From positions 62,001 to 126,000 of the forward strand of contig CAJAIJ010000037.1 of NCBI GenBank assembly GCA_903939845.1: a stretch of DNA of 64,000 nt, given 5' to 3'. This document shows, piece after piece, positions 6,080 through 62,010 of the stretch. This DNA is from an uncultured Solirubrobacterales bacterium (GTDB taxonomy: Bacteria; Actinomycetota; Thermoleophilia; Solirubrobacterales; 70-9). The notes under the pieces are model-generated. The model searched no databases, was not told where the DNA came from, and saw only the letters and a list, made by a program, of their open reading frames with translations. A program made the position numbers and the translations under genes. Each line of letters begins with the position of its first letter. Position 1 is the first letter of the stretch.

Positions 6080-6085
6080 GCCCGC

Positions 6086-6934
6086 TCAGGTCGGCGGAGG
6101 GATGCAGGGGTCCCAGGGCAGCGCGAAGAGGTCGTAATCCTTCGAGATCGCGCTGAATCCGAGGTCCACGGCCCGGTCGCAGAAAGCCGACGTCGGGAGT
6201 TCGTATTCGACTGAGAAGACCGCCTTGCCCCTGTTGAGGAAAGGACGGTACTGCCCGCACTCGTCGTACTGGAAACACTGCTCGACCACCGCGAAGTCGA
6301 ATGCTCCTGCGAGCTCTCGGGCCTGAGGACCGTCGTTCTTCAGGCCTGCCGCCAGACGATTGCGGTGAGCCAGCCGGGCCAGCCACCGGTTGTAGCGGAG
6401 CTGTTCAGTCCGGGTGATCGAGAACCCGGTCGGGTTCTCCCAGCCGTTGACGTTGTCGAACTCGACCCCGTGAAAGCCCTTCCTCCGACAGTTGCGGACC
6501 CGATCTTCGATCACCGGAGCAAACAGGCGGTACCTCGAGACATCGAGCCATCGCTCGTCTGGATAGCCGTCGTACCTCTTGCCGAGCACGCGGCCCGGGA
6601 AGCGGTTCCGGTCGGAGCGAAAGTTCTCCCAACTGCCTGCATTCAGGTAGCAGATGACCTTCACGCCCTTCTTCCGCAGAGCCTGAACAGTCTCGCGTGA
6701 GGTGAAGTCGCCGTCGGTCTCGAACACCGGAGCCGGGACCGAGCGGTCTATTTTCCCCTGCAGCTGGAACTGCCAGGCCTGAACCGTCGGTTTCGGCTTC
6801 CACCAGGCCTGTGCCTGCATCGGCACCGTCATGGCAATCAGACCGATGGCGAGCATGAGCACGCCGATACGGAACCTCGATTTCCTGCCCGACTTCACTG
6901 CTTCGAGCATAGCTCCCGGTCTGACCCGGGTCAT
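6086..6934 (-). CDS. Exported GH114-like glycoside hydrolase (endo-alpha-1,4-polygalactosaminidase family), 282 aa
   Basis: A basic N-terminus, a hydrophobic stretch (about residues 23-40, IGVLMLAIGLIAMTVP) and AQA before WWKPK suggest a signal peptide, so the protein is secreted or tethered. The mature part has the GH114 TIM-barrel pattern: WQFQLQGKID near the start, VKVICYLNAGSWENFR, the RWLDVS segment, the GVEFDNVNGWENPTGF strand with likely acidic catalytic residues, and LKNDGPQ. Family members cleave galactosamine-containing polysaccharides such as exopolysaccharide. The start (6934) lies 6 bp after the stop of the ThyX-like gene, so they are co-transcribed. Actual substrate is inferred only from the family. 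Confidence 0.8.
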   Translation of the reverse strand: MTRVRPGAMLEAVKSGRKSRFRIGVLMLAIGLIAMTVPMQAQAWWKPKPTVQAWQFQLQGKIDRSVPAPVFETDGDFTSRETVQALRKKGVKVICYLNAGSWENFRSDRNRFPGRVLGKRYDGYPDERWLDVSRYRLFAPVIEDRVRNCRRKGFHGVEFDNVNGWENPTGFSITRTEQLRYNRWLARLAHRNRLAAGLKNDGPQARELAGAFDFAVVEQCFQYDECGQYRPFLNRGKAVFSVEYELPTSAFCDRAVDLGFSAISKDYDLFALPWDPCIPPPT

Positions 6935-6940
6935 CGGGTA

Positions 6941-8566: not shown

Positions 8567-8636
8567 CGCCCGAAACTAACAGGCCGACCGGAAGTGTTCG
8601 ACCCGGGCCGAACGGCCCTCGGAAGGGGCTATCCGA

Positions 8637-8993
8637 TCAGGCCGGAGACGACTCCATCAGCTCGACCAGATGGCCGGAGGGGCCTGTCGCCTTCGCCCTC
8701 GGAGAGCCCCAGTACTCGGCCCCGGGGACGACCTCGAAACCGGCCTCGCGAACCGCCTCGACCGTAGCCTCGAAATCGTCTGCGACCAGAGCGAGATGCC
8801 CGGAGGCAGGCAGCTGGGGTTCGGGGACCGGGAGCAGGTGGACCTGCTGTTCACCTGCCTGCATCCAGACCGAGGAGCCGCCGATCCCCTCGGGAGGATC
8901 GACCCGGGCGAAGCCGAGGAGCTCCCAGAATCGGATCTCATCGGCAATCAGGTCGTCGCCGATCTCGAGCGATACGTGCTGGATCCGTGGCAT
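8637..8993 (-). CDS. VOC (glyoxalase/bleomycin-resistance) family protein (118 aa)
   Basis: Single vicinal-oxygen-chelate domain: HVSLEIGDDLIADEIRFWE at the start (beta-alpha with metal-ligand His), GGSSVWMQAG in the middle, SGHLALVADDFEATVEAVRE (second module) and ATGPSGHLVELMES at the end, with a likely terminal metal-ligand Glu. Such proteins are metal-dependent lyases, dioxygenases or epimerases, or bind drugs; sequence alone does not select among them. It is a stand-alone gene between the AEC transporter and the ThyX-like gene, both on the same strand. Confidence 0.85.
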   Translation of the reverse strand: MPRIQHVSLEIGDDLIADEIRFWELLGFARVDPPEGIGGSSVWMQAGEQQVHLLPVPEPQLPASGHLALVADDFEATVEAVREAGFEVVPGAEYWGSPRAKATGPSGHLVELMESSPA

Positions 8994-9023
8994 CGCGTGA
9001 TCATCCCAGCCCGGGCGCCGAAA

Positions 9024-9944
9024 TCAACCGAAGACGCTCCATGCGAGCCCGACCAAGACCACGATCGCGGTGGTCCACCCCACCGCCTCGGCCGTCGTCC
9101 TGAGGTCGAGACCGTATGCGTGGGCGACGATCATCGAATTCAGGCCGGCCGGCATCGCTGCCAGGAGGAAGAAGGATCGGGGGATCCCGGTGAATGGCAT
9201 GGCGAGAAGGGAGAGGGCGGCCGGGGAGACGACCAGCCGGGAGAAGGCGACCGTGGCCACCCGGGAGTTCAGTCCGGGCAGGGTCGGCAGACGCTCAGCC
9301 CGCTGGGCCTCGGCGATCACGGCACCGACCGCGAAGAAGCCGACCGGAAGGACGAGCGCGACCAGGACCCAGGAGACCTCGACCAGGAAGTCGGGCGTGG
9401 CCGAGGCCGGGAAGAGCGCGCCCAGGACCGCGGCGTAGAGCAGGGGGTTCTTCAGGAAGAAGGATCGGAGCCGCTCCGAGAAGCCGGCTCCGGCCCGGGT
9501 TCCGAAGGCGGCTCCCACTCCGAAGGCAAACACGGTCAGGGCGATTCCGGAGACGACGACGTCATAGGCGACGCCCTGCGAGAGATCGTCTCCACCCATC
9601 AGGGTGAGGACGAGTGGATAGCCGAGGTAGCCCGTGTTCGAGGTGACCGAGCAACAGATCACGGCCCCGGCGACCGGTCGGTCCAGATCGAGGAGCCGGG
9701 TCGAGATCAGCCAGGCGACCGCTCCGACAACGGCGACCGAGGTGACCCCGAGAACGAGGCCCACCCCTAGTCCTGCATCGAAGTCGGTCTCTGCCAGATT
9801 GACGAAGACGATCGGGGGAAGCACGAAATAGAGGAGGATCACGAGCGACCGGCGGGAGCCGGAGCCGGCCCGATCGGGCCACCTCCTCTCGGCCAGGAGT
9901 CCGACCACGGTCGAGGCGAGTATGGCCGCTGCGATCCAGATCAC
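9024..9944 (-). CDS. AEC-family (auxin efflux carrier-like) membrane transporter (306 aa)
   Basis: About ten hydrophobic segments spread over the length, the expected size for the AEC/malonate-efflux family. Typical features are the LYFVLPPIVFVNLAE segment near residue 40, the CCSVTSNTGYLGYPLVL helix breaker with NTGYLGYP, and the terminal repeat MPAGLNSMIVAHAYGLD. Members export or import small carboxylates and related compounds. GTG start at 9944. It sits 46 bp downstream of the last complex I gene (nuoN ends at 9991) on the same strand, so read-through transcription is possible, but it is not part of complex I. Confidence 0.87.
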   Translation of the reverse strand: MIWIAAAILASTVVGLLAERRWPDRAGSGSRRSLVILLYFVLPPIVFVNLAETDFDAGLGVGLVLGVTSVAVVGAVAWLISTRLLDLDRPVAGAVICCSVTSNTGYLGYPLVLTLMGGDDLSQGVAYDVVVSGIALTVFAFGVGAAFGTRAGAGFSERLRSFFLKNPLLYAAVLGALFPASATPDFLVEVSWVLVALVLPVGFFAVGAVIAEAQRAERLPTLPGLNSRVATVAFSRLVVSPAALSLLAMPFTGIPRSFFLLAAMPAGLNSMIVAHAYGLDLRTTAEAVGWTTAIVVLVGLAWSVFG

Positions 9945-9990
9945 GGGTGTCGCTCCGGTGGCTCGGCGACCATCGGCGGGCCGAAGGGCC

Positions 9991-11499
9991 TCAACCGGTC
10001 AGACTGAGGATCGCGTCCCCTGCCCGGGAGGCGAAGTCGTAGAGCGGGTCGGGGAAGATCCCGAAGAAGATCACGGCGACGGAGGCGATCACGATCGGCA
10101 CCACGAGGCCGAGATCCTTCCAGGGAGGGGTTCCGCCGGTGACCAGGAGGTCTCCGTCGATGTGGCCGTCTTCGCCCTGAGGCGCCGGATCGTTGGTCCA
10201 CATCACCGCGACCACCCGCAGGTAGTAGGCGAGCGAGAGCATGGTCCCGATCACGATCACGATCGCGAGCCAGACCCAGTTCTGATCGGCGAGGGCCTCG
10301 ATCAGGAAGACCTTGCCGAGAAAGCCTGCGGTCGGAGGCAGGCCGGCGAGACCGAGCATCGCGATCGTCATCGGCCAGGCGACGATGCGGTGGGAGTTGC
10401 CGGCGCCCCTGAGCGAGGCGATCGAGTCCGACCCGGTCATCCGCTCGTGCACGATCAGTGCACCGAAGGCGGCCAGATTCATCGCCAGGTAGGCGGCGAG
10501 ATAGAAGGTGAGGGCATCGACGCCGTCGGCGGTTGCGACGATGATGCCGGCCAGCATGTAGCCGGCCTGGGCGACGCCGGAGTAGCCGAGCATCCGCTTC
10601 AGTGAGCTCTGGGTCAGGGCGCCGAGGTTTCCGATCGCGATCGAGAGCGTCGCGAGCACGGCCAGAATCACATCCCACTGATCGGTCTCGGGTGCCAGCG
10701 CGACCAGGAAGAAACGGGCGAAGACGGCGAATGCAGCGAGCTTGGTAGCCCCCGACATGAAGGCCGTGACCGGGGTCGGCGCACCCTGGTAGACGTCGGG
10801 CGTCCACTGGTGAAACGGGGCGATCGAGACCTTGAAGGCGAGCCCGACCGTGATCATCCCGATGCCGAACAGGACGAGTGAATCCGAGATGACACCGCCC
10901 TTGGTCAGGCCTTCGGCGATTGCCTGGAACCCGACTTCGCCACCGGAGCCGCCATAGATCATCGCCATGCCGAACAGGAGGGTGGCCGAGCCGAGCGATC
11001 CGATGATCAGGTACTTGAGTCCTGCCTCCAGCGAGCCGGGCCGACGGAGGTCGGTTGCGCAGAGCACATAGAGCGGGATCGAGAAGAACTCCAGGGCCAG
11101 GAAGAAGATGATCAGATCGTTGGCCATGGTCAGCATGACCATCCCGAAGACGGAGCTGAGCAGCATCGCCAGGAAGTCGGGCCTTCCGACCTGTCGTCCG
11201 GCGATGTCGCCGGCGGCGTAGAGGACCGCGACGATGCCGGCGATCAGGATCAGGAGGGAGAAGGTGGTCGAGAGTCCGTCGATCCGCAGCGAACCGGAAA
11301 CCAGGTCGGCCTCGGTGCCGAACTGCCAGACCAGACAGCCGGCCGCAACGGCCATCGAGAGGATCGCGAGGCCCGGAGCCAGCCTCTTCAGGGGTCTGAA
11401 GACCGCCGTGAGCACGATCGCGACGAGGCCGACCGCGAGGGCGATCAGGGGTGAGAGTGCCGCGTAGTCGAGCGTCGGTGCCTCGAAAGTTCCGGTCAC
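9991..11499 (-). CDS. nuoN: NADH-quinone oxidoreductase subunit N
   Basis: Antiporter-like membrane subunit of complex I, part of the proton-pumping arm. About 14 hydrophobic helices; the proton-channel core is seen in FHQWTPDVYQGAPTPVTAFMS and the preceding lysine-bearing helix (FKVSIAPFHQW). 502 aa is the usual length. It is the last nuo gene; its ATG overlaps the nuoM stop by 4 nt, indicating translational coupling. Confidence 0.97.
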   Translation of the reverse strand: MTGTFEAPTLDYAALSPLIALAVGLVAIVLTAVFRPLKRLAPGLAILSMAVAAGCLVWQFGTEADLVSGSLRIDGLSTTFSLLILIAGIVAVLYAAGDIAGRQVGRPDFLAMLLSSVFGMVMLTMANDLIIFFLALEFFSIPLYVLCATDLRRPGSLEAGLKYLIIGSLGSATLLFGMAMIYGGSGGEVGFQAIAEGLTKGGVISDSLVLFGIGMITVGLAFKVSIAPFHQWTPDVYQGAPTPVTAFMSGATKLAAFAVFARFFLVALAPETDQWDVILAVLATLSIAIGNLGALTQSSLKRMLGYSGVAQAGYMLAGIIVATADGVDALTFYLAAYLAMNLAAFGALIVHERMTGSDSIASLRGAGNSHRIVAWPMTIAMLGLAGLPPTAGFLGKVFLIEALADQNWVWLAIVIVIGTMLSLAYYLRVVAVMWTNDPAPQGEDGHIDGDLLVTGGTPPWKDLGLVVPIVIASVAVIFFGIFPDPLYDFASRAGDAILSLTG

Positions 11500-49168: not shown

Positions 49169-50086
49169 CTAGTCGAAGACGTACAGGAGCAGGAAGGCCG
49201 CCAGAGCGAAGACGACTCCGGCCGCGATCATCCCCTTGTCCTCGGCGACGATGGCTGCGGTCGAGCGGTCGTCCGAGCGATCGTAGATCAGGTAGAGGTA
49301 GCGGAAGATCCCGTAGACCACGGGAGGGATGGTCAGCATCATCCGACTGCCGATGAGCGGCGAGTAGACCGTGTAGATCGCGTAGCTGATCACGGTCGCA
49401 GTGGTCACCATCGCGACCATCTGGTCGAGGAAGGGGAGCGAGTAGTGCTCCAGGACCGGACGCGAGGAGGTTCCCTCGTGGAGCTCCGAGACGGCCTCCT
49501 GGCGGCGCTTGGTGAAGCCGAGGAAGCAGGCGAGGGCGCCGGTGCAGAGGATCAGCCACTCGGAAGCCGTGGTATCGACCGCCTCGGCGCCGGCCATCAC
49601 CCTGAGGATGAACAGGGCGGCCAGGGTCATCACGTCGATGATCACGATCTGCTTGAGACCGAACGAGTAGCCCATCTGGATCACGCCGTAGCCGGCAACC
49701 ATCAGCCCGACCTGCCACCCGACGGCCAGGAAGGCGAGGACGAGAGCACCGGCGGCGAGGACGGCGGCGAGGACCCAGGCGGCGGAGATCGGGAGCTGGC
49801 CGGCCGCGATCGGCCTGAATCGCTTCTTCGGGTGCTGCCTGTCCAGTTCGACGTCGTTGAGGTCATTGACGAAGTAGCCGGCGCTGGAGATGGCGCAGAA
49901 GGCGACGAAGGTGAGGAAGGCCTGGCCGACCGCCCAGGGATCCGTTACCTGACCGGAGAAGAGAAGGCCGGCGAAGACGAGGACGTTCTTGACCCACTCG
50001 TGGGGACGGGCCGTCTTCAGGGCCGCCCTGAAGGGAGACCTGTCGGGCAGGCCGGGAGGGCTGTTTTCAGTGGTGGTTGATTCCAT
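49169..50086 (-). CDS. UbiA-family prenyltransferase, decaprenyl-phosphate phosphoribosyltransferase-like (305 aa)
   Basis: Polytopic (about nine helices). RPHEWVKNVLVFAGLLFS start, first Asp-rich motif NDLNDVELDRQHPKKRFRPIAAG, second region FGLKQIVIIDVMTLAALFILRVMAG and TKRRQEAVSELHEGTSSRPVLEHYSLPF. This pattern is that of the branch that transfers 5-phosphoribose to decaprenyl phosphate, the first committed step for arabinose donors in mycobacteria. In this lineage the product may serve another wall polymer. 108 bp after the AGPS-like gene on the same strand. Confidence 0.87.
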   Translation of the reverse strand: MESTTTENSPPGLPDRSPFRAALKTARPHEWVKNVLVFAGLLFSGQVTDPWAVGQAFLTFVAFCAISSAGYFVNDLNDVELDRQHPKKRFRPIAAGQLPISAAWVLAAVLAAGALVLAFLAVGWQVGLMVAGYGVIQMGYSFGLKQIVIIDVMTLAALFILRVMAGAEAVDTTASEWLILCTGALACFLGFTKRRQEAVSELHEGTSSRPVLEHYSLPFLDQMVAMVTTATVISYAIYTVYSPLIGSRMMLTIPPVVYGIFRYLYLIYDRSDDRSTAAIVAEDKGMIAAGVVFALAAFLLLYVFD

Positions 50087-50194: not shown

Positions 50195-51835
50195 TCAGGT
50201 CGGGTCCGGTCGGTCGACCAGGACTCCGGGGTTGAGCATCCAGGAGGGATCGACCCCGGACTTGGCCGACGCGAGCGCTGCGGCGAACGGCTCCGGCCGC
50301 TGGCGGTCATACCACGGCCTGTGGTCCCTGCCGACGGCGTGGTGATGGGTGATCGTGCCTCCGGCGGTTGCGATCGCCTCCGAGGCCGCCCGCTTGATCT
50401 CGTCCCACTGCTCGACCTCGCCCCCCCTGACCGCCGGGGCGATCACGGTGAAATAGGGGGCGGCGCCATCGGGGTATACATGGGTCAGCCGGCAGGTGAC
50501 CCTCGGCGGCAGGCTCCCGGGAGTTCCGGCATCGAGCGCGGCCCGAACGGTCGCCTCGACCACAGAGCCGTGGAACTCGGCGAACCGATCCCAGGTGATC
50601 GCGCTCTCGAAGGTCTCGCTGAGAACGCCGCAGCAGACGAGGGTGTCCCGCAGGTAGGGGGCCATCAGGAAGGCGGTTCGCCACCGCCCCGCACCGGACT
50701 CGTCCTCGCCGTCCGGTCCCTGGCCGTCCACGACCCTCCGGGCACGGACCTCGCCGCCGCTGGCCGTTGCGATCCCGACTGCCCGATCGAGCATCTCCCC
50801 GACCGGGACCGTGGCCGACTCGAAGCCCAACAGGAGGAGGTCTTCTGAGCCGTCACCGGCCATCATCATGGCGGCTTCGTTTCGATCGATCAGTCGGCAG
50901 TTCGAGGGTGCCAGACCGGACTGGGCAATCTCCCGGACGGCTCCGGTGGCGGCCTCGACGAAGTCCGTGAAACCGATCGTGGCCGATGCCCTGAAGACGG
51001 GTCGGGGCCGAACCCGCACCCAGGAGTCGGTGATCACACCGAGGGTTCCCTCCGATCCGATCAACAGCCGGTCCGGGGAGGGTCCGGCGCCCGAGCCGGG
51101 AAGGCGCCGGCTCTGCCAGAGCCCGGAAGGGGTGACGGCGGTCACCGACTCGACCAGATCGTCGATGTGGGTCTCCCCGGTGGCGAAGTGTCCGCCGGCC
51201 CGGGTCGCGACCCAGCCCCCGAGGGTCGAGAACTCGAAGGACTGCGGGAAGTGCCTGAGGGTCAGATCGTGTTCACGCAACATCGCCTCCAGCGCCGGAC
51301 CCCTGGCCCCGGCTTCGATCCGGGCCGATCCCGAAACGGAATCCACCTCGAGGACAGAAGCCATCTCCCTGAGATCGAGGCTGATCACGGGCCGCTCCGG
51401 ATCATCGAGTCTGGGTTCGACCCCGCCTACGACCGAGGTGCCCCCACCGAAAGGGATCACTGCGGCCCCCGCCGAGTCGGCCCGCTCGAGTACGAGCTCG
51501 ACCTCCTCGCGATCGGCCGGGAAGGCGACGACGTCGGGAGGGTTCTCGAACTCACCGCGGTGGCCCCGGACGACATCCCGATAGGCCTTGCCGAGCGAGT
51601 GGACCAGGCGCTCGTGCCGGTCGGAGGTGAAGAGCCCCTCGCGACCCTCGGGCAACTCGATGCGAGGCCCGGCGAGAACGACCTCTTCGGCGGCGACGGG
51701 CTCGACCGGCTCCTCCCCGAAGCCGAACATCTGACGGACCCCGGACGCCGCCTCGTTCAGTTCACGGGACGACGGAGCCTGGTCCTCGAAACCCCAGCCC
51801 CAGTGCTTAAGACGACGCACCGACGAATCGGCCAC
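50195..51835 (-). CDS. Alkyldihydroxyacetonephosphate synthase (AGPS)-like FAD flavoprotein (546 aa)
   Basis: FAD-binding (PCMH/VAO-type) enzyme. HWGWGFED at the N-terminus and HHHAVGRDHRPWYDRQRPEPF near the C-terminus with LNPGVL are typical AGPS signatures; FAD-binding VIPFGGGTSVVGG, then FSTLGGWVATRAGGHF and RLLIGSEGTLGVI. AGPS replaces the acyl chain of acyl-DHAP by a long-chain alcohol to form the ether bond of alkylglycerolipids. Its 5' neighbour is a fatty acyl-CoA reductase-like gene 4 bp upstream on the same strand, which would make the alcohol. Function as AGPS remains to be shown; some actinobacterial relatives have other roles. Confidence 0.82.
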   Translation of the reverse strand: MADSSVRRLKHWGWGFEDQAPSSRELNEAASGVRQMFGFGEEPVEPVAAEEVVLAGPRIELPEGREGLFTSDRHERLVHSLGKAYRDVVRGHRGEFENPPDVVAFPADREEVELVLERADSAGAAVIPFGGGTSVVGGVEPRLDDPERPVISLDLREMASVLEVDSVSGSARIEAGARGPALEAMLREHDLTLRHFPQSFEFSTLGGWVATRAGGHFATGETHIDDLVESVTAVTPSGLWQSRRLPGSGAGPSPDRLLIGSEGTLGVITDSWVRVRPRPVFRASATIGFTDFVEAATGAVREIAQSGLAPSNCRLIDRNEAAMMMAGDGSEDLLLLGFESATVPVGEMLDRAVGIATASGGEVRARRVVDGQGPDGEDESGAGRWRTAFLMAPYLRDTLVCCGVLSETFESAITWDRFAEFHGSVVEATVRAALDAGTPGSLPPRVTCRLTHVYPDGAAPYFTVIAPAVRGGEVEQWDEIKRAASEAIATAGGTITHHHAVGRDHRPWYDRQRPEPFAAALASAKSGVDPSWMLNPGVLVDRPDPT

Positions 51836-51838
51836 CGG

Positions 51839-53878
51839 CTACCAGTGCACGCCGCGCAGCAGGTGGGCGAAGGCGACCGCCTCGGCCGAGGTCGCCTCGA
51901 TCTGCTGCTCGACCTCCGCCTCGGTCCCGGTCCCGGTCCCGGCCTCGGTCCCGGTCTTGGCCGAAGCCGCCTTCGACTCGGGGAAGAGCTTGTAGCCCAT
52001 GTTGAGGACCCGGTCGCTGGTCTTGGGCGAGAGCGCATAGAGCAGCTCGCCGAAGTTGCCGAGGGCGGTTGCGACCTTCTTCGGCCGGTCGATCATCGCC
52101 CCGGTGATCATCTCGGCAGCGTCATCGGGGCTGCTGGTCGGGAATGCGTCGTACATCCGGGTGGGGGCGATCATCGGAGTCCGGACCAGTGGCATGTAGA
52201 TCGCCGTGATGTGGACCCCGTCGTCGATCACCTCGGACGCGACCGAACGGCCGAAGGCGTCGAGTGCCGCCTTGGAGGCGATGTAGGCCGAGAACCTCGG
52301 CACGTTGGTCTGGACCCCGATCGAGGAGACGTTGATGATGTGACCGCTCTTTCGCTCCCGCATCTTCGGCAGGAGCGCCAGGATCAACTTCAGCGAACCG
52401 AAGTAGTTGAGCTGCATGGTCCGCTCGTAGTCGTGGAACCGGTCGTAGGAGAGCCCGACCGAACGCCGGATCGATCGACCGGCATTGTTGACGAGGATGT
52501 CCACGTGGCCGTGCTCCTCCAGGACCTCGCCAGCCATCCGCTCGACGTCCTCGACATCGGAGAGATCACAGGGATGTATCGAGGCCAATCCGCCAGTCCT
52601 CTCTATCTCTTCCTTGAGCTCGGCAAGCTTGTCCGTGGAGCGAGCCACGAGCAGGACCCGGCCACCGGCCTCTCCGACCTTGAGCGCCGTGGCCCGGCCG
52701 ATTCCGGAAGAGGCCCCGGTGATCATCACGTTGCGGCCCCGGACGGCTCCGGTCAACGTCCGGTCCCTGGGCAGTCCGGGGTCGAGGTTCTGCTCCCAGT
52801 ACTCCCAGAGGCGATCGGCGTAGGCCGCGAGCGGGGGCACCGAGATGTCGGTACCCGCCAGAGCGTCGAGCGTGTTCGAGCAGTCGAAGTCGGTCGGGTA
52901 GTTGACGTAGACCAGGACCTCGGACGGGATCCCGAGTTCGTCGAGCGCGAGGCGGGCAGCGAGGCGGGCCGGAGCCAGAAGGCCGAGCCCGGCGAGTCCA
53001 CCGGTCAACGAGGAGGGAACGAGATCGAGCAGGCGGGAGTCCAGCCTGACCGACATCTGCGGAGCATGGGCTTCGCGGGCGAACAGGTTGATGATCTGCC
53101 CCGCGGTCAACGGGTCGGGGTCGGTCAGGTGGAAGGTCTGACCGTCACGGCCCTCGAGATGGGCAATGTGATCCATCGCGGCGGCCACGAAGTCGACCGG
53201 GACGACGTTGATCCGGCGGCCTTCGATACCTACGGTCGGAAGCCAGTCGGGCAACACCGAACCGAAACGCTTGATCGCACTGAAGAAGTAGTAGGGACCG
53301 TCGATCTTGTCCATCTCGCCGGTTTCGGAATCGCCGACGACGACCCCCGGTCGGTAGACCCGGAAAGGCCGGTCGAGGTCCTCCCTGACGATCTTCTCGG
53401 ACTCGTGCTTGGTCCGGAAGTAGGCGTGCTGATCGAGATCGGTCGCCTGCTCGAACATGTTCTCGCGCCAGGTGCCCCGGTAGAGGCCGGCCGCCGCGAT
53501 CGAGCTGGCGAGATGGAAACAGCCGACTCCGAGCTGATTTGCCAGCTGGACGGCGTTCCGGGTTCCGTCCACGTTGCCCTTCTCGATGGTGGCAGCGTCT
53601 GCCTTCATGTCGTAGATCGCGGCGAGGTGGAAGAAGTGGTCGATCTTGCCTGTCAGCTCCTCGATCCGGTCTTCGTCCAGACCCATCATCGGTTCCGAGA
53701 TGTCGCCGATCACCGGGACTACCTCGAACCCGGCGGTACCCCAGCCGGCGATCAGGTCCTCGAGCCGGCCCTTCGACTCCTCCCTGACCAGCGCGTACAC
53801 GGTGCCGCCCCGGGCCAGGAGCTTCCCGATCAGGTAGCGACCGATGAAACCTGTCCCTCCGGTGACGAAGTAGTTCAT
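51839..53878 (-). CDS. Fused SDR, fatty acyl-CoA reductase-like (679 aa)
   Basis: Two Rossmann domains. N-terminal NAD_binding_4/Male-sterile type (TGGTGFIG at residues 6-13; YFRTKHESEKIV with Y and K of the YxxxK site), then a classical SDR (MITGASSGIGRAT, NNAGRSIRR, YIASKAALDAFG). This architecture and size match bacterial fatty acyl-CoA reductases (Marinobacter FACoAR, mycobacterial AcrA1) that reduce acyl-CoA to fatty alcohol. A low-complexity TGTEAGTGTGTEAE tail near the C-terminus arises from short repeats. GGAGGAG 6 nt before ATG 53878. Adjacent to the AGPS-like gene. Confidence 0.82.
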   Translation of the reverse strand: MNYFVTGGTGFIGRYLIGKLLARGGTVYALVREESKGRLEDLIAGWGTAGFEVVPVIGDISEPMMGLDEDRIEELTGKIDHFFHLAAIYDMKADAATIEKGNVDGTRNAVQLANQLGVGCFHLASSIAAAGLYRGTWRENMFEQATDLDQHAYFRTKHESEKIVREDLDRPFRVYRPGVVVGDSETGEMDKIDGPYYFFSAIKRFGSVLPDWLPTVGIEGRRINVVPVDFVAAAMDHIAHLEGRDGQTFHLTDPDPLTAGQIINLFAREAHAPQMSVRLDSRLLDLVPSSLTGGLAGLGLLAPARLAARLALDELGIPSEVLVYVNYPTDFDCSNTLDALAGTDISVPPLAAYADRLWEYWEQNLDPGLPRDRTLTGAVRGRNVMITGASSGIGRATALKVGEAGGRVLLVARSTDKLAELKEEIERTGGLASIHPCDLSDVEDVERMAGEVLEEHGHVDILVNNAGRSIRRSVGLSYDRFHDYERTMQLNYFGSLKLILALLPKMRERKSGHIINVSSIGVQTNVPRFSAYIASKAALDAFGRSVASEVIDDGVHITAIYMPLVRTPMIAPTRMYDAFPTSSPDDAAEMITGAMIDRPKKVATALGNFGELLYALSPKTSDRVLNMGYKLFPESKAASAKTGTEAGTGTGTEAEVEQQIEATSAEAVAFAHLLRGVHW

Positions 53879-54079: not shown

Positions 54080-57000
54080 ATGTCCGAAACGACGATCGTT
54101 CAGGTGACGATGCCCGAGATGGGCGAGTCCGTGACCGAGGGGACCGTGCTGGAATGGCACGTCTCGGTCGGCGACGTCGTGGAAGAAGGCCAGACCCTGG
54201 TCGAGGTCTCGACCGACAAGGTCGACGCCGAGGTTCCGGCACCCAGAGCAGGGCGGATCACGAAGCTCTGCGCCGAGCCCGACGACGAGGTCGCGGTCGG
54301 CGACCCGCTTGCCGAGCTCGACCCGAACGACACCGAAGGAACCGCGGGCGGAGCCAGCGATGCGGCGACGATCGACGCCTCGGGGAACGGAAGTCGGAGC
54401 AACGGGAGCGGGAATGGATCTGCCGCAGTCGCCGAGTCCACGACCGGCGAGGCGAGGGCGACACCGATCGCGCGGAGGGTCGCAGCGGCCGAGGGCGTGG
54501 ACCTGGGCTCGATCGATGGATCGGGTCCGGGAGGCAAGGTCAAGCGTGCCGATGTCGAGGCAGTCGCGAACGGAGGCCCCGCGGCGGCCGCCACGAGTTC
54601 GGAGACCGCCCTCCGCGGTGCGTCCGGAATGCTCGCCAGAGCGATGGACGAGAGCCGCTCGATCCCGACCGCGACCTCCTTCAGGACGCTTGCAGTCGAC
54701 ACTCTCGACGCCAAACGGAAAGCACTCAACGCCGGACTCGCAGAGCGCGGGATGAAGGTCTCGTTCACGCACCTGGTGGCCTGGGCGATCACCGTCGCCT
54801 ATCGGGACTGGCCGGTTATGGCGCGGCACTTCGAAGACCGGGACGGAAAGCCGTTCGTGATCGACGATGGAGGCCTCAACCTCGGCATCGCTGTCGACAT
54901 CGAGCGCGAGGACGGAACCCGGAGCCTGATGGTCCCCTCGATCAAGGGAGCCGACGGGATGGACTTCGCCGCTTTCCACGCCGCATACGAAGGGCTGATC
55001 GCCAAGGCCAGGGACGGCGCCCTAACGGCTGACGACATGACTCTCACCAACCTGACCCTGACCAACCCGGGCGGGATCGGAACGGTCGCCTCGGTGCCCC
55101 GGCTGATGACCGGCCAGGGGGCGATCATCGCGACCGGCTCGATCGCATACCCGCCGGAATGGTCACATGCCGACCCCGGATCGATCGCGGCCTCGGGAGT
55201 CTCGAAGGTGATGACGATGACCTCGACCTACGACCACCGGATCATCCAGGGGGCCGAGTCGGGCAACTTCCTGAAGGCGATCGATGCCCTGCTCGGCGGA
55301 AGCGGCGATTTCTACGAATCGATCGCGGCAGACCTCGGCACTGACCCGACCCCGGTCGCGACCGCGGCACCGAAGGCATCGTCGAGAGCGGTCTCCAACG
55401 GGACGGTCGCGGCGGCGGCTGGACCTGGAACGGCGACGGGAGGAGGCGAGGTCAGCCAGGAGATGCTCCAGGCCGTTCAGGCCGCAACCTCGCTGCTGAA
55501 GGCCTACAGGACCCACGGCCATCTGGCGGCGAGCCTCGACCCGCTCGGGAGCAAGCCGAAGGGCGACCCGGCGCTCGACCCCGAAAACCTCCACTTGACC
55601 CCGGAGCTGATGTCGAAGATCCCGGCCTCGATCCTCAGGATCGGCGTGCCGGGCGAGACCCTGCTCGAGGCCCTGCCGAGGATGAAGGCCGCCTACACCG
55701 GGACGACCGCCTACCAGTTCGAGCACATCTCCTCCCACCAGCAGCGGGTCTGGATGAGGGAGATGATCGAGACCGGAGCCTTCCGCAAGCCCCTGGATCG
55801 GGAGGAGCAGAAGCGTCTTCTCGCCCGTCTGGTCGAGGTGTTCGAGTTCGAGCGATTCCTCGAAAAGGCCTACCTGGGCCAGAAGATCTTCTCGATCGAG
55901 GGCCTCGACGTGATGGTCCCGATGCTCGACGAGATCGCGACCCTTGCCCTGAACGACGGTGCCGGCGAGGTCGTCCTCGGCATGGCCCATCGGGGTCGGC
56001 TCTCGGTCCTCGCCCACAACGTCGGACGATCGATCGAATCGATCTTCGCCGAGTTCGAGGGGTCGAAGCGCCTGGAGGATGTGAAGGCCGTGGCGGCGAT
56101 CCCGCACGGTGGCACCGGTGACGTCAAGTACCACTACGGCCACGAGGGCACCTACGAAAACCACGAGGGCAACACGATCGACGTCCACCTCTATCCGAAC
56201 CCGAGCCATCTGGAGTCGGTGAACCCGGTGGTGACGGGAGCAGCGAGGTACTCCCAGAACGTTCGCGAGGGTGCCGATCTCGACCACAGGACCAGCCATG
56301 CAGTTCCGGTCCTGATCCACGGCGATGCAGCCTTCCCGGGCCAGGGTGTCGTCGCCGAGACCCTGAACCTGCTCGCACTCGACGGCTACTCGGTCGGCGG
56401 AACGATCCACATCATCTCCAACAACCAGATCGGGTTCACCACCGACCCGACCGATGCCCGGTCGACTCCCTACGCCGCCGATATGGCCAAGGGCTTCAAC
56501 GTCCCGATCATCCACGTGAACGCCGATGACGTCGAGGCCTGCTCTCAGGCAATCAGGCTGGCGATGGCCTACCGGCGGGAGTGGAACCGCGACATCGTGA
56601 TCGACGTGGTCGGCTACCGCAGGTTCGGACACAACGAGACCGACGAGCCGGCCTACACCCAGCCGGTGATGACTTCGATGATCAAGGGCCATCCCCCGGT
56701 CTCGGAGGTCTACACCTCGAAGCTGATCGCGGAGAAGGCGGTCACCGAGCAGGAGGTCGAGGCGCTGGCCGAGGCCCGGCGCACAGAGATGCGGGAGACC
56801 CTCGACGAACTCCGCCGCAAGATGGACAGCGGCGTGTACGAGGACCCGACCGTGACCTCGACCGGAACGAGCGAGCTGAACCGCGGGGCCAGCCCGCCAG
56901 TCAAGACCGCCGTGCCCGAGGACAGGCTCCGGATCCTGAACGATGCCCTGGTCGAGGTCCCCGAGGACTTCACGATCCAGCGCAAGCTGAAGAAGCCGTT

Positions 57001-58072
57001 GTCGAGGAGGGTCGAGGCACTCGACGAGGGCGGGATCGACTTCGCCCAGGCAGAGTCCCTGGCGTTCGCCTCGCTGCTCGAAGAGGGTGTGCACGTTCGG
57101 CTGACCGGTCAGGACAGCGAGCGGGGAACCTTCTCCCAGCGTCACCTGGTCCTCCACGACGAGCACGACGGCCGGCCATGGGCCCCGATCCAGAACCTCG
57201 AGCAGGCCACCGCTCCGTTCGAGCTCTACAACAGTCCCCTTTCCGAAGCCGGCTGCCTCGGGTTCGAATACGGCTACTCCTCGTCCAACCCCGATTCACT
57301 GGTTCTCTGGGAGGCCCAGTTCGGCGACTTCGCCAACTCGGCCCAGGTGATCATCGACACCTTCATCGCCTCGGGCGAGGCGAAGTGGGGCCTGACCACG
57401 AGGCTGACGATGCTTCTGCCGCACGGACACGAAGGTGCCGGTCCCGAGCACTCGAGCGCCAGGATGGAGCGTTTCCTCTCGCTGGCGGCCGAGGGCAACA
57501 TGCGGATCGCGAATCCCTCGACCGCCGCCCAGTACTTCCACCTGCTCAGGCGTCAGGCGATGATCAGGAAGCCGAGACCCCTGGTCGTCTTCACCCCCAA
57601 GGGTCTCCTCAGGCAGCCGGCCGCCGCCGCCCGCCTCGACCAGCTCGTCAACGAGCACTTCCACTTCATCCTCGAGGATCCCCGCGCTGTCAAGCGACGC
57701 AAGAAGGTCGAGCGTCTGGTCCTCTGCTCCGGCCGGATCTACTACGACCTCGACTCGTCCGAGGCCCGGGAGGGCGCCGAGAACGTCGCGGTCGGGAGGG
57801 TCGAGCTGCTCTATCCGTTCGCCGAGGAACAGGTCGAGCAGATGATCGCCTCCTACCCGAACCTCAAGGAGGTCGTCTGGGTTCAGGAGGAGCCGAAGAA
57901 CATGGGTGCCTGGAGCGTGATGAGAAGGCGTCTGCCGGACCTGTTGCCGGATGGAGTCGCTCTCGAGTACGTGGGCAGACCGGGCAGGTCGAGTCCCGGA
58001 GAGGGTTACTCGGTGACACATGTGCGCGAGCAGGAGAGAATCGTCCTGACCGCTCTCACGGTCGGGGCCTGA
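54080..58072 (+). CDS. kgd: Multifunctional 2-oxoglutarate dehydrogenase: lipoyl-PSBD-E2-E1 fusion (1330 aa)
   Basis: One chain combining E2 and E1 of the 2-oxoglutarate dehydrogenase complex (TCA cycle). Order: lipoyl domain (about 5-80, lipoyl Lys47 in STDKVDAE), Ser/Gly/Asn linker, peripheral-subunit-binding domain (126-163, ATPIARRVAAAEGVDLGSI), E2 catalytic domain (about 195-425, catalytic DHRIIQGAESGNF near residue 385), E1 (about 450-1330) with MAHRGRLSVLAHNV, HYGHEGTYE, HLESVNPVV, LIHGDAAFPGQGVV, NNQIGFTTDP (TPP/Mg). Actinobacterial Kgd/OdhA normally lacks the lipoyl and binding domains; having them is notable. ATG 54080 follows TAGACT (54065-54070) by 9 nt and an AAAGGG stretch. Confidence 0.93.
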   Translation: MSETTIVQVTMPEMGESVTEGTVLEWHVSVGDVVEEGQTLVEVSTDKVDAEVPAPRAGRITKLCAEPDDEVAVGDPLAELDPNDTEGTAGGASDAATIDASGNGSRSNGSGNGSAAVAESTTGEARATPIARRVAAAEGVDLGSIDGSGPGGKVKRADVEAVANGGPAAAATSSETALRGASGMLARAMDESRSIPTATSFRTLAVDTLDAKRKALNAGLAERGMKVSFTHLVAWAITVAYRDWPVMARHFEDRDGKPFVIDDGGLNLGIAVDIEREDGTRSLMVPSIKGADGMDFAAFHAAYEGLIAKARDGALTADDMTLTNLTLTNPGGIGTVASVPRLMTGQGAIIATGSIAYPPEWSHADPGSIAASGVSKVMTMTSTYDHRIIQGAESGNFLKAIDALLGGSGDFYESIAADLGTDPTPVATAAPKASSRAVSNGTVAAAAGPGTATGGGEVSQEMLQAVQAATSLLKAYRTHGHLAASLDPLGSKPKGDPALDPENLHLTPELMSKIPASILRIGVPGETLLEALPRMKAAYTGTTAYQFEHISSHQQRVWMREMIETGAFRKPLDREEQKRLLARLVEVFEFERFLEKAYLGQKIFSIEGLDVMVPMLDEIATLALNDGAGEVVLGMAHRGRLSVLAHNVGRSIESIFAEFEGSKRLEDVKAVAAIPHGGTGDVKYHYGHEGTYENHEGNTIDVHLYPNPSHLESVNPVVTGAARYSQNVREGADLDHRTSHAVPVLIHGDAAFPGQGVVAETLNLLALDGYSVGGTIHIISNNQIGFTTDPTDARSTPYAADMAKGFNVPIIHVNADDVEACSQAIRLAMAYRREWNRDIVIDVVGYRRFGHNETDEPAYTQPVMTSMIKGHPPVSEVYTSKLIAEKAVTEQEVEALAEARRTEMRETLDELRRKMDSGVYEDPTVTSTGTSELNRGASPPVKTAVPEDRLRILNDALVEVPEDFTIQRKLKKPLSRRVEALDEGGIDFAQAESLAFASLLEEGVHVRLTGQDSERGTFSQRHLVLHDEHDGRPWAPIQNLEQATAPFELYNSPLSEAGCLGFEYGYSSSNPDSLVLWEAQFGDFANSAQVIIDTFIASGEAKWGLTTRLTMLLPHGHEGAGPEHSSARMERFLSLAAEGNMRIANPSTAAQYFHLLRRQAMIRKPRPLVVFTPKGLLRQPAAAARLDQLVNEHFHFILEDPRAVKRRKKVERLVLCSGRIYYDLDSSEAREGAENVAVGRVELLYPFAEEQVEQMIASYPNLKEVVWVQEEPKNMGAWSVMRRRLPDLLPDGVALEYVGRPGRSSPGEGYSVTHVREQERIVLTALTVGA

Positions 58073-58545: not shown

Positions 58546-61500
58546 ATGAAGTCAGGATTTGGTCGCATCGATCTCGAGGGACGCTCGCACCGCCGCCCAA
58601 TCTCGATCGCATTCGTATTGGTAGTGATCTCATCCCTCCTGCTCGCAGTCGCCGGCCCTGCAGCGGCCGATCGCCCGTTCTCCCCCAGATTCACCCAGAA
58701 CGTCCAGGGCGCAATCACCTTCGCGGCCAACACCGTCATGACCTGCCCGGACTCCGACTCCAGGTGCCCCGCGGCACAGGCGGGGACGGGATCGACCCTC
58801 AACAACAACCAGTTCAACATGCGCTACGTCGACATCGACGGCGACCCGGCTACTTTCAACTCGTCCTCGGCAGTGCTGACGATCCCCTCGGGGGCACAGG
58901 TCCTGTTCGCCGGGCTGTACTACGACGGCCAGACCACGGCCGGGGTTGGCGGCACGGCCGCACCGACGCCCTCCGCCCGCGGGACCGTCCGGCTCCGCGT
59001 GCCGGGCCTCCTCGGGTTCCAGACGCTCACGGCATCGGTCGACAACTCGACCTCGGGCAAGTACGCGGCCTTCGTGGACATCACTGACCAGGTGACAGGA
59101 GCGGGTTCCGGTTCCTACACGGTCGGCAACGTCCAGACCGGCACCGGCGAGGACCGGGGCGGTGGCTGGGCGATCGTCGTCGCCTACCGCGACCCTTCCG
59201 AACCGGCCCGGAACCTGACGATCTTCGACGGCCTCGAAACCGTTAGCCAGGGCGAGACCAAGACGATCGGGGTGACCGGGTTCCAGACCCCGGCCTCTGG
59301 CCCGGTCAGAACCAATGTCGGATTCGTGACCTACGAAGGAGATCGGGGCTCGACCGGAGACAGCGCGACCCTGAACGGGACGGTGCTCTCGAGTGCCACC
59401 AACCCTGCCAACAACTTCTTCAACAGCTCGATCTCGGAGAATGGCGTCCTGCTGACCGACAAGGACCCCGACTACAACAACCAGCTCGGCTTCGACGCCG
59501 TGCAGGTGAACGCCGACGGGATTCTGGCCAACGGGGCCACGAGCGCCGCGATCAGGCTGCAGACCAACAGGGACCAGTACATGCCACACGTGGTGACCTT
59601 CGCGACCGAAATCTTCTCGCCGACGATCGCGGCCGTCAAGACGGTCCAGAACATCACCAACCCGGCCCAGCCGGCGAGGTCCGGGGATGTCCTGCGCTAC
59701 CAGCTCCAGTACACGAACTCGGGCGGCGACGGTGCGACCCAGTTCATCGCCACCGACACGATCCCCGGCGGCACGACCTATGCCCCGGGAAGCCTGAAGA
59801 TCACCTCTGGCCCCAATGCGCCCGCCTCGCCGACCGACGCGATCGGAGACGACCTGGCCGAGTTCCTGCCGGCCTCGAACTCGGTCCGGTTCCGACTGGG
59901 CCAGGGTGCATCGAACACCTCGGGCGGCACGCTCTCGGCCGCGGGCGGACCGGCCACCACGACGACGATCACGTTCGAGGTGACGGTCGGCGACCTGCCA
60001 TCCGGGACCGCGATCTCGAACACGGGCGAGGCGGAGTTCCTCTCGCAGACGCTCAGCACGCCCCAGACGGCTGAGTCGAACACGGTCGTGAACGAAGTGA
60101 TCGCCCCTGACCTCGAGATGTCGAAGAACCATGTCGTGCCGATCGTGGGAGTCGATGTCGAGTTCACGCTCGGAGTCGAGAACGTCGGCACGGCCTCGAC
60201 CGACGGCTCGGCCGTGACCGTGACCGACTCGTTCGACCCCGCAGCCTTCTCGGCGATCAACATCACCTCGGCACCGGGCTGGAACTGCTCTGCAACGAGC
60301 GGGCTGAACCTGTCCTGTACCCGCACCGATGTCGTGGCAACCGGAGCCTCCTACCCGGGGATTCAGGTCACGGGCACCGTCGTTGCCTCGCCCCCGGCAA
60401 CCTTCACCAACGAAGCCGAGGTGGCGGGCGGCGGAGACAACACGCCCGGCAACAACCTCGCGGTCGACTTCCTGCCGGTCCCACCGACCTCCAGTGACCT
60501 CTCGATCGTCAAGACGGTTGCTCCGGCGACGGTCCTCCCCGGTCAGAGGGTCACCTACACCCTGGAGGTCGCGAATGCCGGGCCTTCGAATGCGACGGGA
60601 GTGACCGTCGAGGACTCCTGGGCCTTCAGCGGTCTGATCGACGTGACGGCAACACCGTCTCAGGGAACCTGTCCGACGGTCACGACCTCTTCGGTGCTCT
60701 GCGAGATCGGCAACCTGGCCACGGGCGGCACTGCAACGGTCGAGATCTCGGCGACGGTCGACTTCGACGACTCTTCGGGACTGCTCAACACGGCGTCGGT
60801 CGAAGGCGACCAGGCAGACCCGAGGCCCGACAACAACGAGTCTTCGGCCACCTTCGATGCCGCGGCCGCCTCGGACATCGAGGTCGTCAAGACGGCGGGC
60901 ACCGACCCGATCGCCGGCGAGGCTTTCAGCTACACGATCGACATCACCAACAACGGGCCTTCCGATGCCGACGGAGTCGTAGTCAACGAGCAGATCCCTG
61001 AACTGTTCCTTCCGGCCGAAGTCATCGGGCCGGGGTTTGCTTTCTGCTCGGCCGCGGAAGCAGGAGGGACCCTGTCCTGCACCTACGATGGCCCTCTGGC
61101 CGTCGGGGCGACCGCAACGCTCACCTTGATCGGAACTCTGGCTCCCGCCAGCGCCGGTGTACCAGTCATCAACACGGCTTCCGCCTATTCGAGCGAAGCC
61201 GACTCGAACCCGGACAACAACTCCTCCTCGGTCACGGTCATACCCCTCCCGTTCGCCGACATCGCGATGAGCAAGACGGCCAGTGCGGACTCGGTCGAGG
61301 CCGGCCAGACCGTGACCTGGACCTTCATCGTCCAGAACTTCGGCCCGCTCGATGCCGACCCGGTGATACTCGAGGACGAGCTGCCTGCCGGCCTTGCGAT
61401 CGTCTCCCTCCCGGATGGATGCGGAGTCGAGGAAACGACCCTTACCTGCAACCTCGGCGCGCTCGGGCTCGACGAATCCCGGACACTTGCCCTGACCGTG

Positions 61501-62010
61501 AGGCCCGGTCCGGCATTCGCGGGCGAGACGATCACGAACTCGGCCTCGGTGAGCTCTCCGAGGCCCGACCCGAACCAGGCCAACCAGTCCGACACCTCCT
61601 CGTTCGAGGTGACCTCCGGCAAGACCCGCCTGAAGCTCGACCAGACGGTGAACAGGAAGAAGGCCAGATCCGGTGGCAAGTTCGCCTTCGGAATCACCGT
61701 CAGCAACACTTCGGATACTTCGGCCTACGACTCGGTGGTATGCCAGAGGCTCCCCCGCGCCCTGAAGATAGTCAGAGCCCCGGGTGCGAAGATCGGCCCC
61801 GGCAGGAAGGCCTGCTGGACCATCGGCCGCCTCGATCCCGACAGGTCTAGGCAGTTCTCGGTCCTGACCCGCGGGTTCTCGAGCAGGACTACCTCGGCCA
61901 CCGCCCCGGTGACGCTCTCCGGCGAGAACGTCGTCGACGGAAGGCAGAGCAAGACGGTCCGGATCGTGGTGCCGCGGAAGCCGAAGCCACCCCAGCCCGT
62001 AGCCGGCTGA
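58546..62010 (+). CDS. Large secreted DUF11-repeat surface protein (1154 aa)
   Basis: Signal peptide (basic start, hydrophobic residues about 20-38, AAADRP cleavage region). The N-terminal domain (about 45-360) contains NVQGAITFAANTVMTCPD, LFAGLYYDGQTT and GWAIVVAYRDPSEPARNLTIFDG, like DUF3344/surface-adhesion domains. Then six DUF11-type repeats, each starting with a (D/E)xxxxKT strand and containing (T/N)NxGxSxAxxVxVxD-like strings, at about 362-515, 523-640, 650-775, 780-895, 900-1025 and 1030-1140. No LPXTG, terminal membrane helix or anchor is visible at the C-terminus (RKPKPPQPVAG). Probably a cell-surface or matrix protein. AAAGAGGAG lies before ATG 58546. Expression appears controlled by the long leader. 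Confidence 0.88.
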   Translation: MKSGFGRIDLEGRSHRRPISIAFVLVVISSLLLAVAGPAAADRPFSPRFTQNVQGAITFAANTVMTCPDSDSRCPAAQAGTGSTLNNNQFNMRYVDIDGDPATFNSSSAVLTIPSGAQVLFAGLYYDGQTTAGVGGTAAPTPSARGTVRLRVPGLLGFQTLTASVDNSTSGKYAAFVDITDQVTGAGSGSYTVGNVQTGTGEDRGGGWAIVVAYRDPSEPARNLTIFDGLETVSQGETKTIGVTGFQTPASGPVRTNVGFVTYEGDRGSTGDSATLNGTVLSSATNPANNFFNSSISENGVLLTDKDPDYNNQLGFDAVQVNADGILANGATSAAIRLQTNRDQYMPHVVTFATEIFSPTIAAVKTVQNITNPAQPARSGDVLRYQLQYTNSGGDGATQFIATDTIPGGTTYAPGSLKITSGPNAPASPTDAIGDDLAEFLPASNSVRFRLGQGASNTSGGTLSAAGGPATTTTITFEVTVGDLPSGTAISNTGEAEFLSQTLSTPQTAESNTVVNEVIAPDLEMSKNHVVPIVGVDVEFTLGVENVGTASTDGSAVTVTDSFDPAAFSAINITSAPGWNCSATSGLNLSCTRTDVVATGASYPGIQVTGTVVASPPATFTNEAEVAGGGDNTPGNNLAVDFLPVPPTSSDLSIVKTVAPATVLPGQRVTYTLEVANAGPSNATGVTVEDSWAFSGLIDVTATPSQGTCPTVTTSSVLCEIGNLATGGTATVEISATVDFDDSSGLLNTASVEGDQADPRPDNNESSATFDAAAASDIEVVKTAGTDPIAGEAFSYTIDITNNGPSDADGVVVNEQIPELFLPAEVIGPGFAFCSAAEAGGTLSCTYDGPLAVGATATLTLIGTLAPASAGVPVINTASAYSSEADSNPDNNSSSVTVIPLPFADIAMSKTASADSVEAGQTVTWTFIVQNFGPLDADPVILEDELPAGLAIVSLPDGCGVEETTLTCNLGALGLDESRTLALTVRPGPAFAGETITNSASVSSPRPDPNQANQSDTSSFEVTSGKTRLKLDQTVNRKKARSGGKFAFGITVSNTSDTSAYDSVVCQRLPRALKIVRAPGAKIGPGRKACWTIGRLDPDRSRQFSVLTRGFSSRTTSATAPVTLSGENVVDGRQSKTVRIVVPRKPKPPQPVAG

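What the first reader, a model, noticed from the sequence alone, without database searches (positions are those of the whole stretch)
50195..53878. Candidate two-gene ether-lipid module: fatty acyl-CoA reductase plus AGPS-like synthase
A 679-aa fused SDR with the architecture of fatty-alcohol-forming acyl-CoA reductases lies 4 bp upstream of an AGPS-like flavoprotein on the same strand. AGPS needs a fatty alcohol to make the alkyl-ether bond, so the pair supplies both steps after acyl-DHAP. Ether lipids are reported in some deep-branching actinobacteria, but their biosynthetic genes are poorly known.
Basis: partly seen in the sequence, partly recalled or inferred. Interest (0 to 1): 0.7.

Follow-up and report, generated by a model that had tools for sequence, protein, structure and literature searches.

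The report
Bacterial gene pair for ether lipids
Two neighbouring genes in an actinobacterium look like the enzyme that makes fatty alcohols and the enzyme that joins such alcohols to glycerol by an ether bond; this would be a new arrangement of a known pathway, but no ether lipid has been shown here.

Summary
A 679-aa two-domain reductase (51839-53878, -) lies 3 bases upstream of a 546-aa flavoprotein (50195-51835, -; GTG start). The reductase is an AcrB/PRK07201-type fatty acyl-CoA reductase (918 bits, cut-off 549). The flavoprotein belongs to the alkyl-DHAP synthase (AGPS) family, not to lactate/glycolate oxidases: sequence, AlphaFold model (37 best PDB matches all AGPS), active-site residues and trees agree. 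It lies in a bacterial clade ("A") separate from eukaryotic AGPS; I saw no paper assaying a member. In the window's family the pair is adjacent in 37 of 43 genomes that hold both; in 26 such genomes of three sister families it never is. An AGPS plus reductase/acyltransferase operon is already known in Myxococcus xanthus. Verdict: a new variant of a known kind, moderately interesting, directly testable by enzyme assay and lipid analysis.

The parts
51839..53878 (-). Fatty acyl-CoA reductase, AcrB/PRK07201 type, 679 aa, ATG start
   Evidence: NF005539 918 bits over cut-off 549, full length; 55% identical over residues 1-679 to a homologue in the Marinobacter denitrificans genome, L175
53174..53866 (-). 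N-terminal NAD_binding_4 (male sterility/thioester reductase-like) domain, residues 5-235, with TGGTGFIG at 6 and YFRTK at 153
   Evidence: Pfam PF07993 154.5 bits; motifs located
52160..52732 (-). C-terminal short-chain dehydrogenase domain, residues 383-573, with TGASSGIG at 387, NNAG at 464, YIASK at 532
   Evidence: Pfam PF00106 178.3 bits; motifs located
50195..51835 (-). AGPS-family flavoprotein (alkyl-DHAP synthase-like, bacterial clade A), 546 aa, GTG start
   Evidence: PDB sequence matches, AlphaFold model mean pLDDT 87 with the 37 best Foldseek matches all AGPS, trees
51119..51538 (-). FAD_binding_4 domain of the AGPS-like protein, residues 100-239
   Evidence: Pfam PF01565 99.2 bits
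50225..50998 (-). FAD-oxidase_C domain of the AGPS-like protein, residues 280-537, holding R314, R396, Y461 and H497-H499
   Evidence: Pfam PF02913 104.6 bits; residues
49169..50086 (-). Neighbour, perhaps same transcript: UbiA-family protein resembling decaprenyl-phosphate phosphoribosyltransferase; a role in the module is not supported
   Evidence: NF008978 230 bits over cut-off 207, NF008977 228.3 bits under cut-off 234; downstream of AGPS on the same strand in 31 of 40 rows read, repeats and one row of another family included
54080..58072 (+). Neighbour only: divergent 2-oxoglutarate dehydrogenase (fused E2/E1); marks the older place of AGPS in the order
   Evidence: Pfam; kgd lies divergent within 3 kb of AGPS without the reductase in L127, L129, L134, L138, and not so in L125 and L136

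Best explanation
The two genes form a co-directional unit that makes the first ether-bonded intermediate. Step 1 (inferred from family): the reductase uses NADPH to reduce a long-chain acyl-CoA, through the aldehyde, to a fatty alcohol; the N-terminal domain would do the first and the C-terminal domain the second reduction. Step 2 (inferred from family, fold and active-site residues): the FAD of the AGPS-like protein forms an adduct with acyl-DHAP, releases the fatty acid, and adds the fatty alcohol to give 1-O-alkyl-DHAP. Other enzymes would then reduce it to alkyl-glycerol-3-phosphate and feed it into phospholipids or neutral lipids. Shown here: families, fold, conserved residues, conserved linkage. 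Not shown: activities, substrates, ether lipids, the acyl-DHAP source and the later steps.
For: Reductase: NF005539/PRK07201, 918 bits, full length; both Rossmann and both YxxxK motifs present; PRK07201 is the profile used in print for AcrB, described as making fatty alcohol directly from acyl-CoA (PMC11948995, passages). AGPS: best sequence and structure matches are AGPS; residues matching Dictyostelium R352, R447, Y508, named as important by mutagenesis (PMC3509576, figure legend), are present as R314, R396, Y461, and the HHH run as 497-499; R314, Y461 and HHH are the same in 114 of 114 rows counted as clade A, while 0 of 7 GlcD/D-LDH rows have R314 or Y461, several of these rows being gapped there. 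Trees separate the AGPS clades from GlcD. Linkage: 37 of 43 genomes of family f1 with both genes have them adjacent on one strand, 32 of the 37 within 150 bases. Of 72 genomes with clade-A AGPS, 69 have the reductase; one of the 3 without (G015) ends its contig there. In one other actinobacterial MAG (L037) a clade-A AGPS has, 0.7 kb downstream on the same strand, an unrelated FAR1-type reductase (NAD_binding_4, weak Sterile) fused to a HAD phosphatase domain: a second, different pairing, 1 of the 73 loci without an AcrB-type neighbour.
Against: No lipid data and no assay for this clade. The reductase occurs without clade-A AGPS in 20 of 101 genomes, and the association is not significant in the 64 best genomes (Fisher p 0.15; 0.0005 in all 101, without correction for kinship). 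A WS/DGAT match is present in 98 of 101 and in the own genome with HHAMIDG. The position of R396 varies in 20 of 114 clade-A rows and that of H195 in 7 of 114. No PlsB/GNPAT-type DHAP acyltransferase was recognised among six PF01553 proteins; the only PlsB matches are weak (22.6 bits against a cut-off of 618.5, L117). The Micromonospora genome of L074 has a clade-A AGPS but no reductase of this type at E<=1e-40, so the two are not tied outside the family. Regional synteny with kgd and UbiA is also high, which weakens linkage as evidence.
Confidence: 0.6

Rival explanations
1. The reductase serves wax-ester storage: it supplies fatty alcohol to WS/DGAT, and its place beside AGPS is regional synteny. 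AGPS works, if at all, with alcohol from this shared pool.
For: WS/DGAT matches in 98 of 101 genomes and intact motif in the own genome; 20 genomes have the reductase without clade-A AGPS; the reductase stands away from AGPS in the sister-family regions read; AcrB is reported almost exclusively in genomes with WS/DGAT, 94% (PMC11948995, passages); Mtb FCR1/Rv3391 and FCR2/Rv1543 make fatty alcohol for wax esters (PMC3522743, abstract; that they belong to the PRK07201 type is recalled).
Against: Does not explain why the reductase came to lie next to AGPS and stayed within 150 bases in 32 of 37 adjacent pairs. Not exclusive of the best explanation: one alcohol pool can feed both.
Confidence: 0.22
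2. Clade-A AGPS-like proteins have drifted to another substrate, for example another glycerone-phosphate ester or a real oxidation, so no alkyl ether is made.
For: Clade A is a group of its own (100/99), and the window protein is 31% identical to the guinea-pig AGPS fragments; the positions of H195 and R396 vary in part of the clade; no assayed member seen in the listings.
Against: The window protein keeps each catalytic residue checked; the 37 best structural matches are AGPS.
Confidence: 0.13
3. The trio SDR, FAD enzyme and UbiA is a DprE2/DprE1/UbiA-like pathway for decaprenyl-phosphoryl arabinose.
For: A UbiA-family protein resembling decaprenyl-phosphate phosphoribosyltransferase follows AGPS.
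Against: The flavoprotein has the FAD-oxidase_C domain, not the ALO domain that I recall for DprE1, and matches AGPS; the reductase is full-length PRK07201; UbiA was not found beside AGPS in L130 and L132 (G018, G023).
Confidence: 0.03

Closest known systems
MXAN_1676-MXAN_1675(-1674) operon of Myxococcus xanthus (AGPS plus FAR1/GNPAT fusion)
   Same: AGPS next to a fatty acyl-CoA reductase; disruption of MXAN_1676 gave only a minor reduction of ether lipids (PMC9131029, passages). I found such a layout in genome G117: L172 11056-12966 AGPS, then 8361-11054, 897 aa, NAD_binding_4 plus Acyltransferase.
   Different: The AGPS of G117 is eukaryote-like (49% to guinea pig in two stretches) and in another clade; its reductase is FAR1-type fused to an acyltransferase. 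Here it is a two-domain AcrB-type reductase with no acyltransferase. MXAN_1676 itself was not compared by sequence.
Eukaryotic AGPS (guinea pig 4bby, Dictyostelium 2uuu)
   Same: Fold, FAD-binding domain and the catalytic residues checked.
   Different: 29-31% identity over the fragments compared; separate clade.
AcrB fatty acyl-CoA reductase (Marinobacter, PRK07201 profile)
   Same: Full-length match and motifs.
   Different: Known role is wax ester synthesis; I saw no paper that places an AcrB beside an AGPS (search; the passages of PMC11948995 link FarA and FcrA, not AcrB, with ether lipids).
Ger/PlsA-PlsR and ElbD routes to bacterial ether lipids
   Same: Same class of product (PMC11868695 and PMC9702350, passages).
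   Different: Other enzymes; PlsA/PlsR reduce an ester already in the lipid. Their presence in this genome was not searched.

Membership tests
AGPS (alkyl-DHAP synthase) family | VAO-type FAD-binding domain plus FAD-oxidase_C cap, closest to AGPS among solved relatives | tested here: met
AGPS (alkyl-DHAP synthase) family | Catalytic Arg/Arg/Tyr (Dictyostelium R352, R447, Y508) and HHH run | tested here: met
   R314, R396, Y461, H497-499; roles of the Arg/Tyr from the PMC3509576 figure legend, role of the His run recalled
AGPS (alkyl-DHAP synthase) family | Phylogenetic place with AGPS and apart from GlcD/D-LDH | tested here: met
   but in its own clade A, not inside the guinea pig/G117 clade
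AGPS (alkyl-DHAP synthase) family | Exchange of acyl for alkyl on acyl-DHAP | not testable with these tools
   Needs assay
AcrB-type fatty acyl-CoA reductase (PRK07201) | Full-length profile match above cut-off with both reductase domains and motifs | tested here: met
AcrB-type fatty acyl-CoA reductase (PRK07201) | Four-electron reduction of acyl-CoA to alcohol | not testable with these tools
   Inferred from family
MXAN_1676-1675-type AGPS operon | Eukaryote-like AGPS with a FAR1/GNPAT fusion | tested here: not met
   Different AGPS clade from the G117 example and no acyltransferase domain in the reductase
Aerobic plasmalogen pathway | CarF/TMEM189 desaturase (PF10520) | tested here: inconclusive
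   0 of 101 genomes, but none of the 14 control genomes rang either
Complete ether-lipid pathway | DHAP acyltransferase (GNPAT/PlsB-like) | tested here: inconclusive
   Six PF01553 proteins in a 92% complete MAG; only weak PlsB matches, far under cut-off; one of them may still do it
Lactate/glycolate oxidase (GlcD) | Score over the GlcD equivalog cut-off | tested here: not met
   TIGR00387 84.8 bits against cut-off 567.9

The most novel reading that the evidence does not exclude
A family of Solirubrobacterales-like bacteria runs a dedicated alkyl-ether route made of an AcrB-type reductase and a bacterial (clade-A) alkyl-DHAP synthase, independent of Ger/PlsAR and ElbD. It arose when a wax-type reductase came to lie between kgd and AGPS. 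The clade-A AGPS that stand mostly alone in Chloroflexota, Binatota, Myxococcota, Pseudomonadota and other Actinomycetota would then be a large unrecognised source of alkylglycerols.
Probability: 0.4. Interest if true: 0.6.

Novelty: new variant of a known kind. Interest (0 to 1): 0.4.

Why it matters
Alkylglycerols are used as biomarkers, but which bacteria make them and with which genes is known for few groups. A fixed pair of alcohol-maker and ether-maker in an actinobacterial family gives a simple genetic marker, ties an uncharacterised clade of AGPS-like proteins found in several phyla to a likely substrate, and can be tested with one enzyme assay and one lipid extraction.

Tried and rejected
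GlcD/D-lactate dehydrogenase: rejected on scores, active-site columns, structure and trees. DprE1/DprE2 analogue, suggested by the UbiA neighbour: rejected on domains. Plasmalogen desaturase: 0 of 101, inconclusive for want of a ringing control. GNPAT/PlsB and PlsY: none recognised in the own genome; the PlsY control rang in 8 of 14. The MXAN_1676 type in the two Archangium genomes: their clade-A gene shows neither an AcrB-type nor a hit of the G117 reductase/acyltransferase query in the 13.6-kb loci; the eukaryote-like AGPS turned up in 1 of 16 genomes searched there, G117, at 49% identity. The G117 query over the 80 loci hit L037 (103 bits) and, weakly, the AcrB genes of L005, L007 and L009. 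Literature: the terms Thermoleophilia plus ether lipid gave 0 papers; the searches listed no paper that I recognised as describing an AcrB-AGPS pair or an assayed clade-A AGPS, in a library of open-licence papers only, judged from listings and the passages cited. In the co-occurrence count clade-A AGPS was called present at best E below 1e-108, with G076 added by hand because only a contig-end fragment was found. The 114 rows called clade A are all rows not put by me in another group; 48 of them are in the trees.
Full report
What is there. The window lies in a 1.90-Mb, 59-contig, 92% complete genome. Its best named relatives by the AGPS gene are MAGs called Solirubrobacterales or Thermoleophilia. 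On the minus strand a 679-aa reductase (51839-53878) is followed after 3 bases by a 546-aa flavoprotein with a GTG start (50195-51835). A divergent 2-oxoglutarate dehydrogenase starts at 54080 (+), and a UbiA-family gene (49169-50086, -) follows.

Reductase. It carries NAD_binding_4 and adh_short domains and matches NF005539 (PRK07201) over its whole length with 918 bits against a cut-off of 549. Both nucleotide-binding and both YxxxK motifs are present. PRK07201 is the profile used in PMC11948995 for AcrB, described there as making fatty alcohol directly from acyl-CoA with NADPH (passages). A homologue in the Marinobacter denitrificans genome is 55% identical over residues 1-679.

Flavoprotein. 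phmmer against the PDB gives AGPS first (219 and 210 bits) and D-lactate dehydrogenase far behind (75 bits). The AlphaFold model from 45 aligned window and locus proteins, chosen out of 68, has mean pLDDT 87 and pTM 0.89; the first 37 Foldseek PDB matches are all AGPS chains, TM-score up to 0.85, then lactate dehydrogenases follow. Residues matching Dictyostelium R352, R447 and Y508, whose mutation is reported to matter (PMC3509576, figure legend), are R314, R396 and Y461; published and chain numbering differ by 3 (R447 and Y508, R352 counted by hand). R314, Y461 and H497-H499 are the same in 114 of 114 rows counted as clade A; H195 in 107 and R396 in 94 of 114. The roles of the histidines are recalled, not from a call.

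Tree. 136 distinct frames were found; 77 rows with the window and two PDB fragments were kept and 67 used, after dropping short rows and repeats. In this quick tree and in a careful tree of 63 rows (without Dictyostelium, the long GlcD row L155, and L169 and L171, two rows of unsure place), the window protein falls in a bacterial clade A (48 rows, 100/99) apart from GlcD/D-LDH, from the clade of guinea-pig AGPS with a protein of genome G117 (L172), and from clades B and C. The own genome also has a clade-B paralogue (G000:C29:33633-35240; 37% identical) which is likewise closest to AGPS in the PDB (269 bits).

Linkage. In 101 genomes of the own order clade-A AGPS is present in 72 and the reductase in 89; 69 have both, 3 AGPS only, 20 reductase only, 9 neither. 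In family f1, 43 genomes have both and 37 of them have the reductase upstream on the same strand; 32 of the 37 distances between match ends are at most 150 bases. The other 6 have the genes on different contigs; in G025 and G045 contig ends can explain it, in G023 the reductase is still beside kgd while AGPS lies elsewhere (L131, L132), and the other three are unresolved. In families f2 to f4, 26 genomes have both and none has them adjacent. Of six f2/f3 AGPS regions read, four (L127, L129, L134, L138) have kgd divergent within 3 kb of AGPS, two (L125, L136) do not, and none has the reductase there. Six other Solirubrobacterales-like loci (L014, L016, L017, L021, L033, L038), picked because one search suggested it, show the same kgd-AGPS neighbourhood within 1.7 kb. 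The simplest reading is that AGPS near kgd is older and the reductase came in between within f1. Among the best 80 of at least 577 relatives in genome contigs, 7 have an AcrB-type reductase beside AGPS: four titled Solirubrobacterales, one Thermoleophilia, one Actinobacteria, one only 'bacterium'; 65 of the 80 had 2.1 kb or more upstream to judge.

A second pairing. In L037, a MAG titled Actinobacteria bacterium, a clade-A AGPS (5950-7569) is followed on the same strand, after a short unassigned frame, by a 776-aa protein (8258-10588) with NAD_binding_4 (194 bits), a sub-cut-off Sterile match and a HAD phosphatase domain, that is, a FAR1-type reductase unrelated in layout to AcrB. It is 1 of the 73 loci without an AcrB-type neighbour, so it is suggestive only, but it links clade A with fatty-alcohol supply for a second time.

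Weak points of the linkage. Neighbours kgd and UbiA are also conserved, so regional synteny explains part of it. UbiA was found downstream on the same strand in 31 of 40 rows read, repeats and one f3 row included. In the 64 best genomes the co-occurrence of AGPS and reductase is not significant (p 0.15), and no correction for kinship was made. The Micromonospora genome of L074 has clade-A AGPS without an AcrB-type reductase at E<=1e-40, and the two Archangium genomes have only a 35-36% match to the N-terminal half.

Rest of the pathway. The own genome has six PF01553 acyltransferases, PlsC-like by their best general models; the only PlsB matches are weak (22.6 bits against 618.5). No PlsY was found (0 hits; control rang in 8 of 14). 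So the enzyme that would make acyl-DHAP is not identified, nor is the alkyl-DHAP reductase, though many SDR genes are present. No plasmalogen desaturase was found in 101 genomes, but no control rang. WS/DGAT matches are in 98 of 101 genomes; the own genome has two, one with HHAMIDG, so wax esters remain a real outlet for the alcohol.

Known relatives. In Myxococcus xanthus an operon holds AGPS (MXAN_1676, about 42% identical to human AGPS) and a FAR1/GNPAT fusion (MXAN_1675); disrupting MXAN_1676 lowers ether lipids only slightly (PMC9131029, passages). I found the same layout in genome G117 (L172). AGPS homologues have been reported in many phyla including Actinobacteria in the Black Sea (PMC11868695, passages). 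PMC11948995 links FarA and FcrA with AGPS or ElbD, and says acrB is found with WS/DGAT in 94% of cases (passages). The new element here is an AcrB-type reductase fixed beside a clade-A AGPS in one actinobacterial family.

Verdict. Observation confirmed; enzyme families well supported; ether-lipid function likely but unproven; new variant of a known kind; interest 0.4.

Noticed in passing
L037 5950-10588 (+): Clade-A AGPS followed by a FAR1-type reductase fused to a HAD phosphatase domain, with an AMP-binding protein at 795-2357 (-): a possible second ether-lipid locus type.
   Followed up: partly
L116 1324-3033 (+), G000:C16: A PlsC-like acyltransferase runs in frame, without a stop, into a GpsA-like glycerol-3-phosphate dehydrogenase: a possible 570-aa fusion.
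   Followed up: partly
G000 whole genome: No PlsY match although the control rang in 8 of 14 genomes, and no PlsB-type protein above cut-off among the PF01553 hits; the first acylation enzyme of phospholipid synthesis is not identified.
   Followed up: partly
L122 9600-11264 (+), G000:C29: A second AGPS-family protein (clade B) that scores higher against solved AGPS than the window protein; within about 8 kb lie an AMP-binding protein, a CDP-alcohol phosphatidyltransferase and an SDR.
   Followed up: partly
window 49169-50086 (-): UbiA-family protein resembling decaprenyl-phosphate phosphoribosyltransferase, downstream of AGPS in 31 of 40 rows read; its link to the pair is unexplained.
   Followed up: partly
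window 58546-62010 (+): 1154-aa frame with five DUF11 stretches, probably a surface protein.
   Followed up: no
AGPS clade A, 20 of 114 rows: The arginine matching Dictyostelium R447 is replaced by Q, H, L, M or K, which may mark a change of substrate in part of the clade.
   Followed up: no
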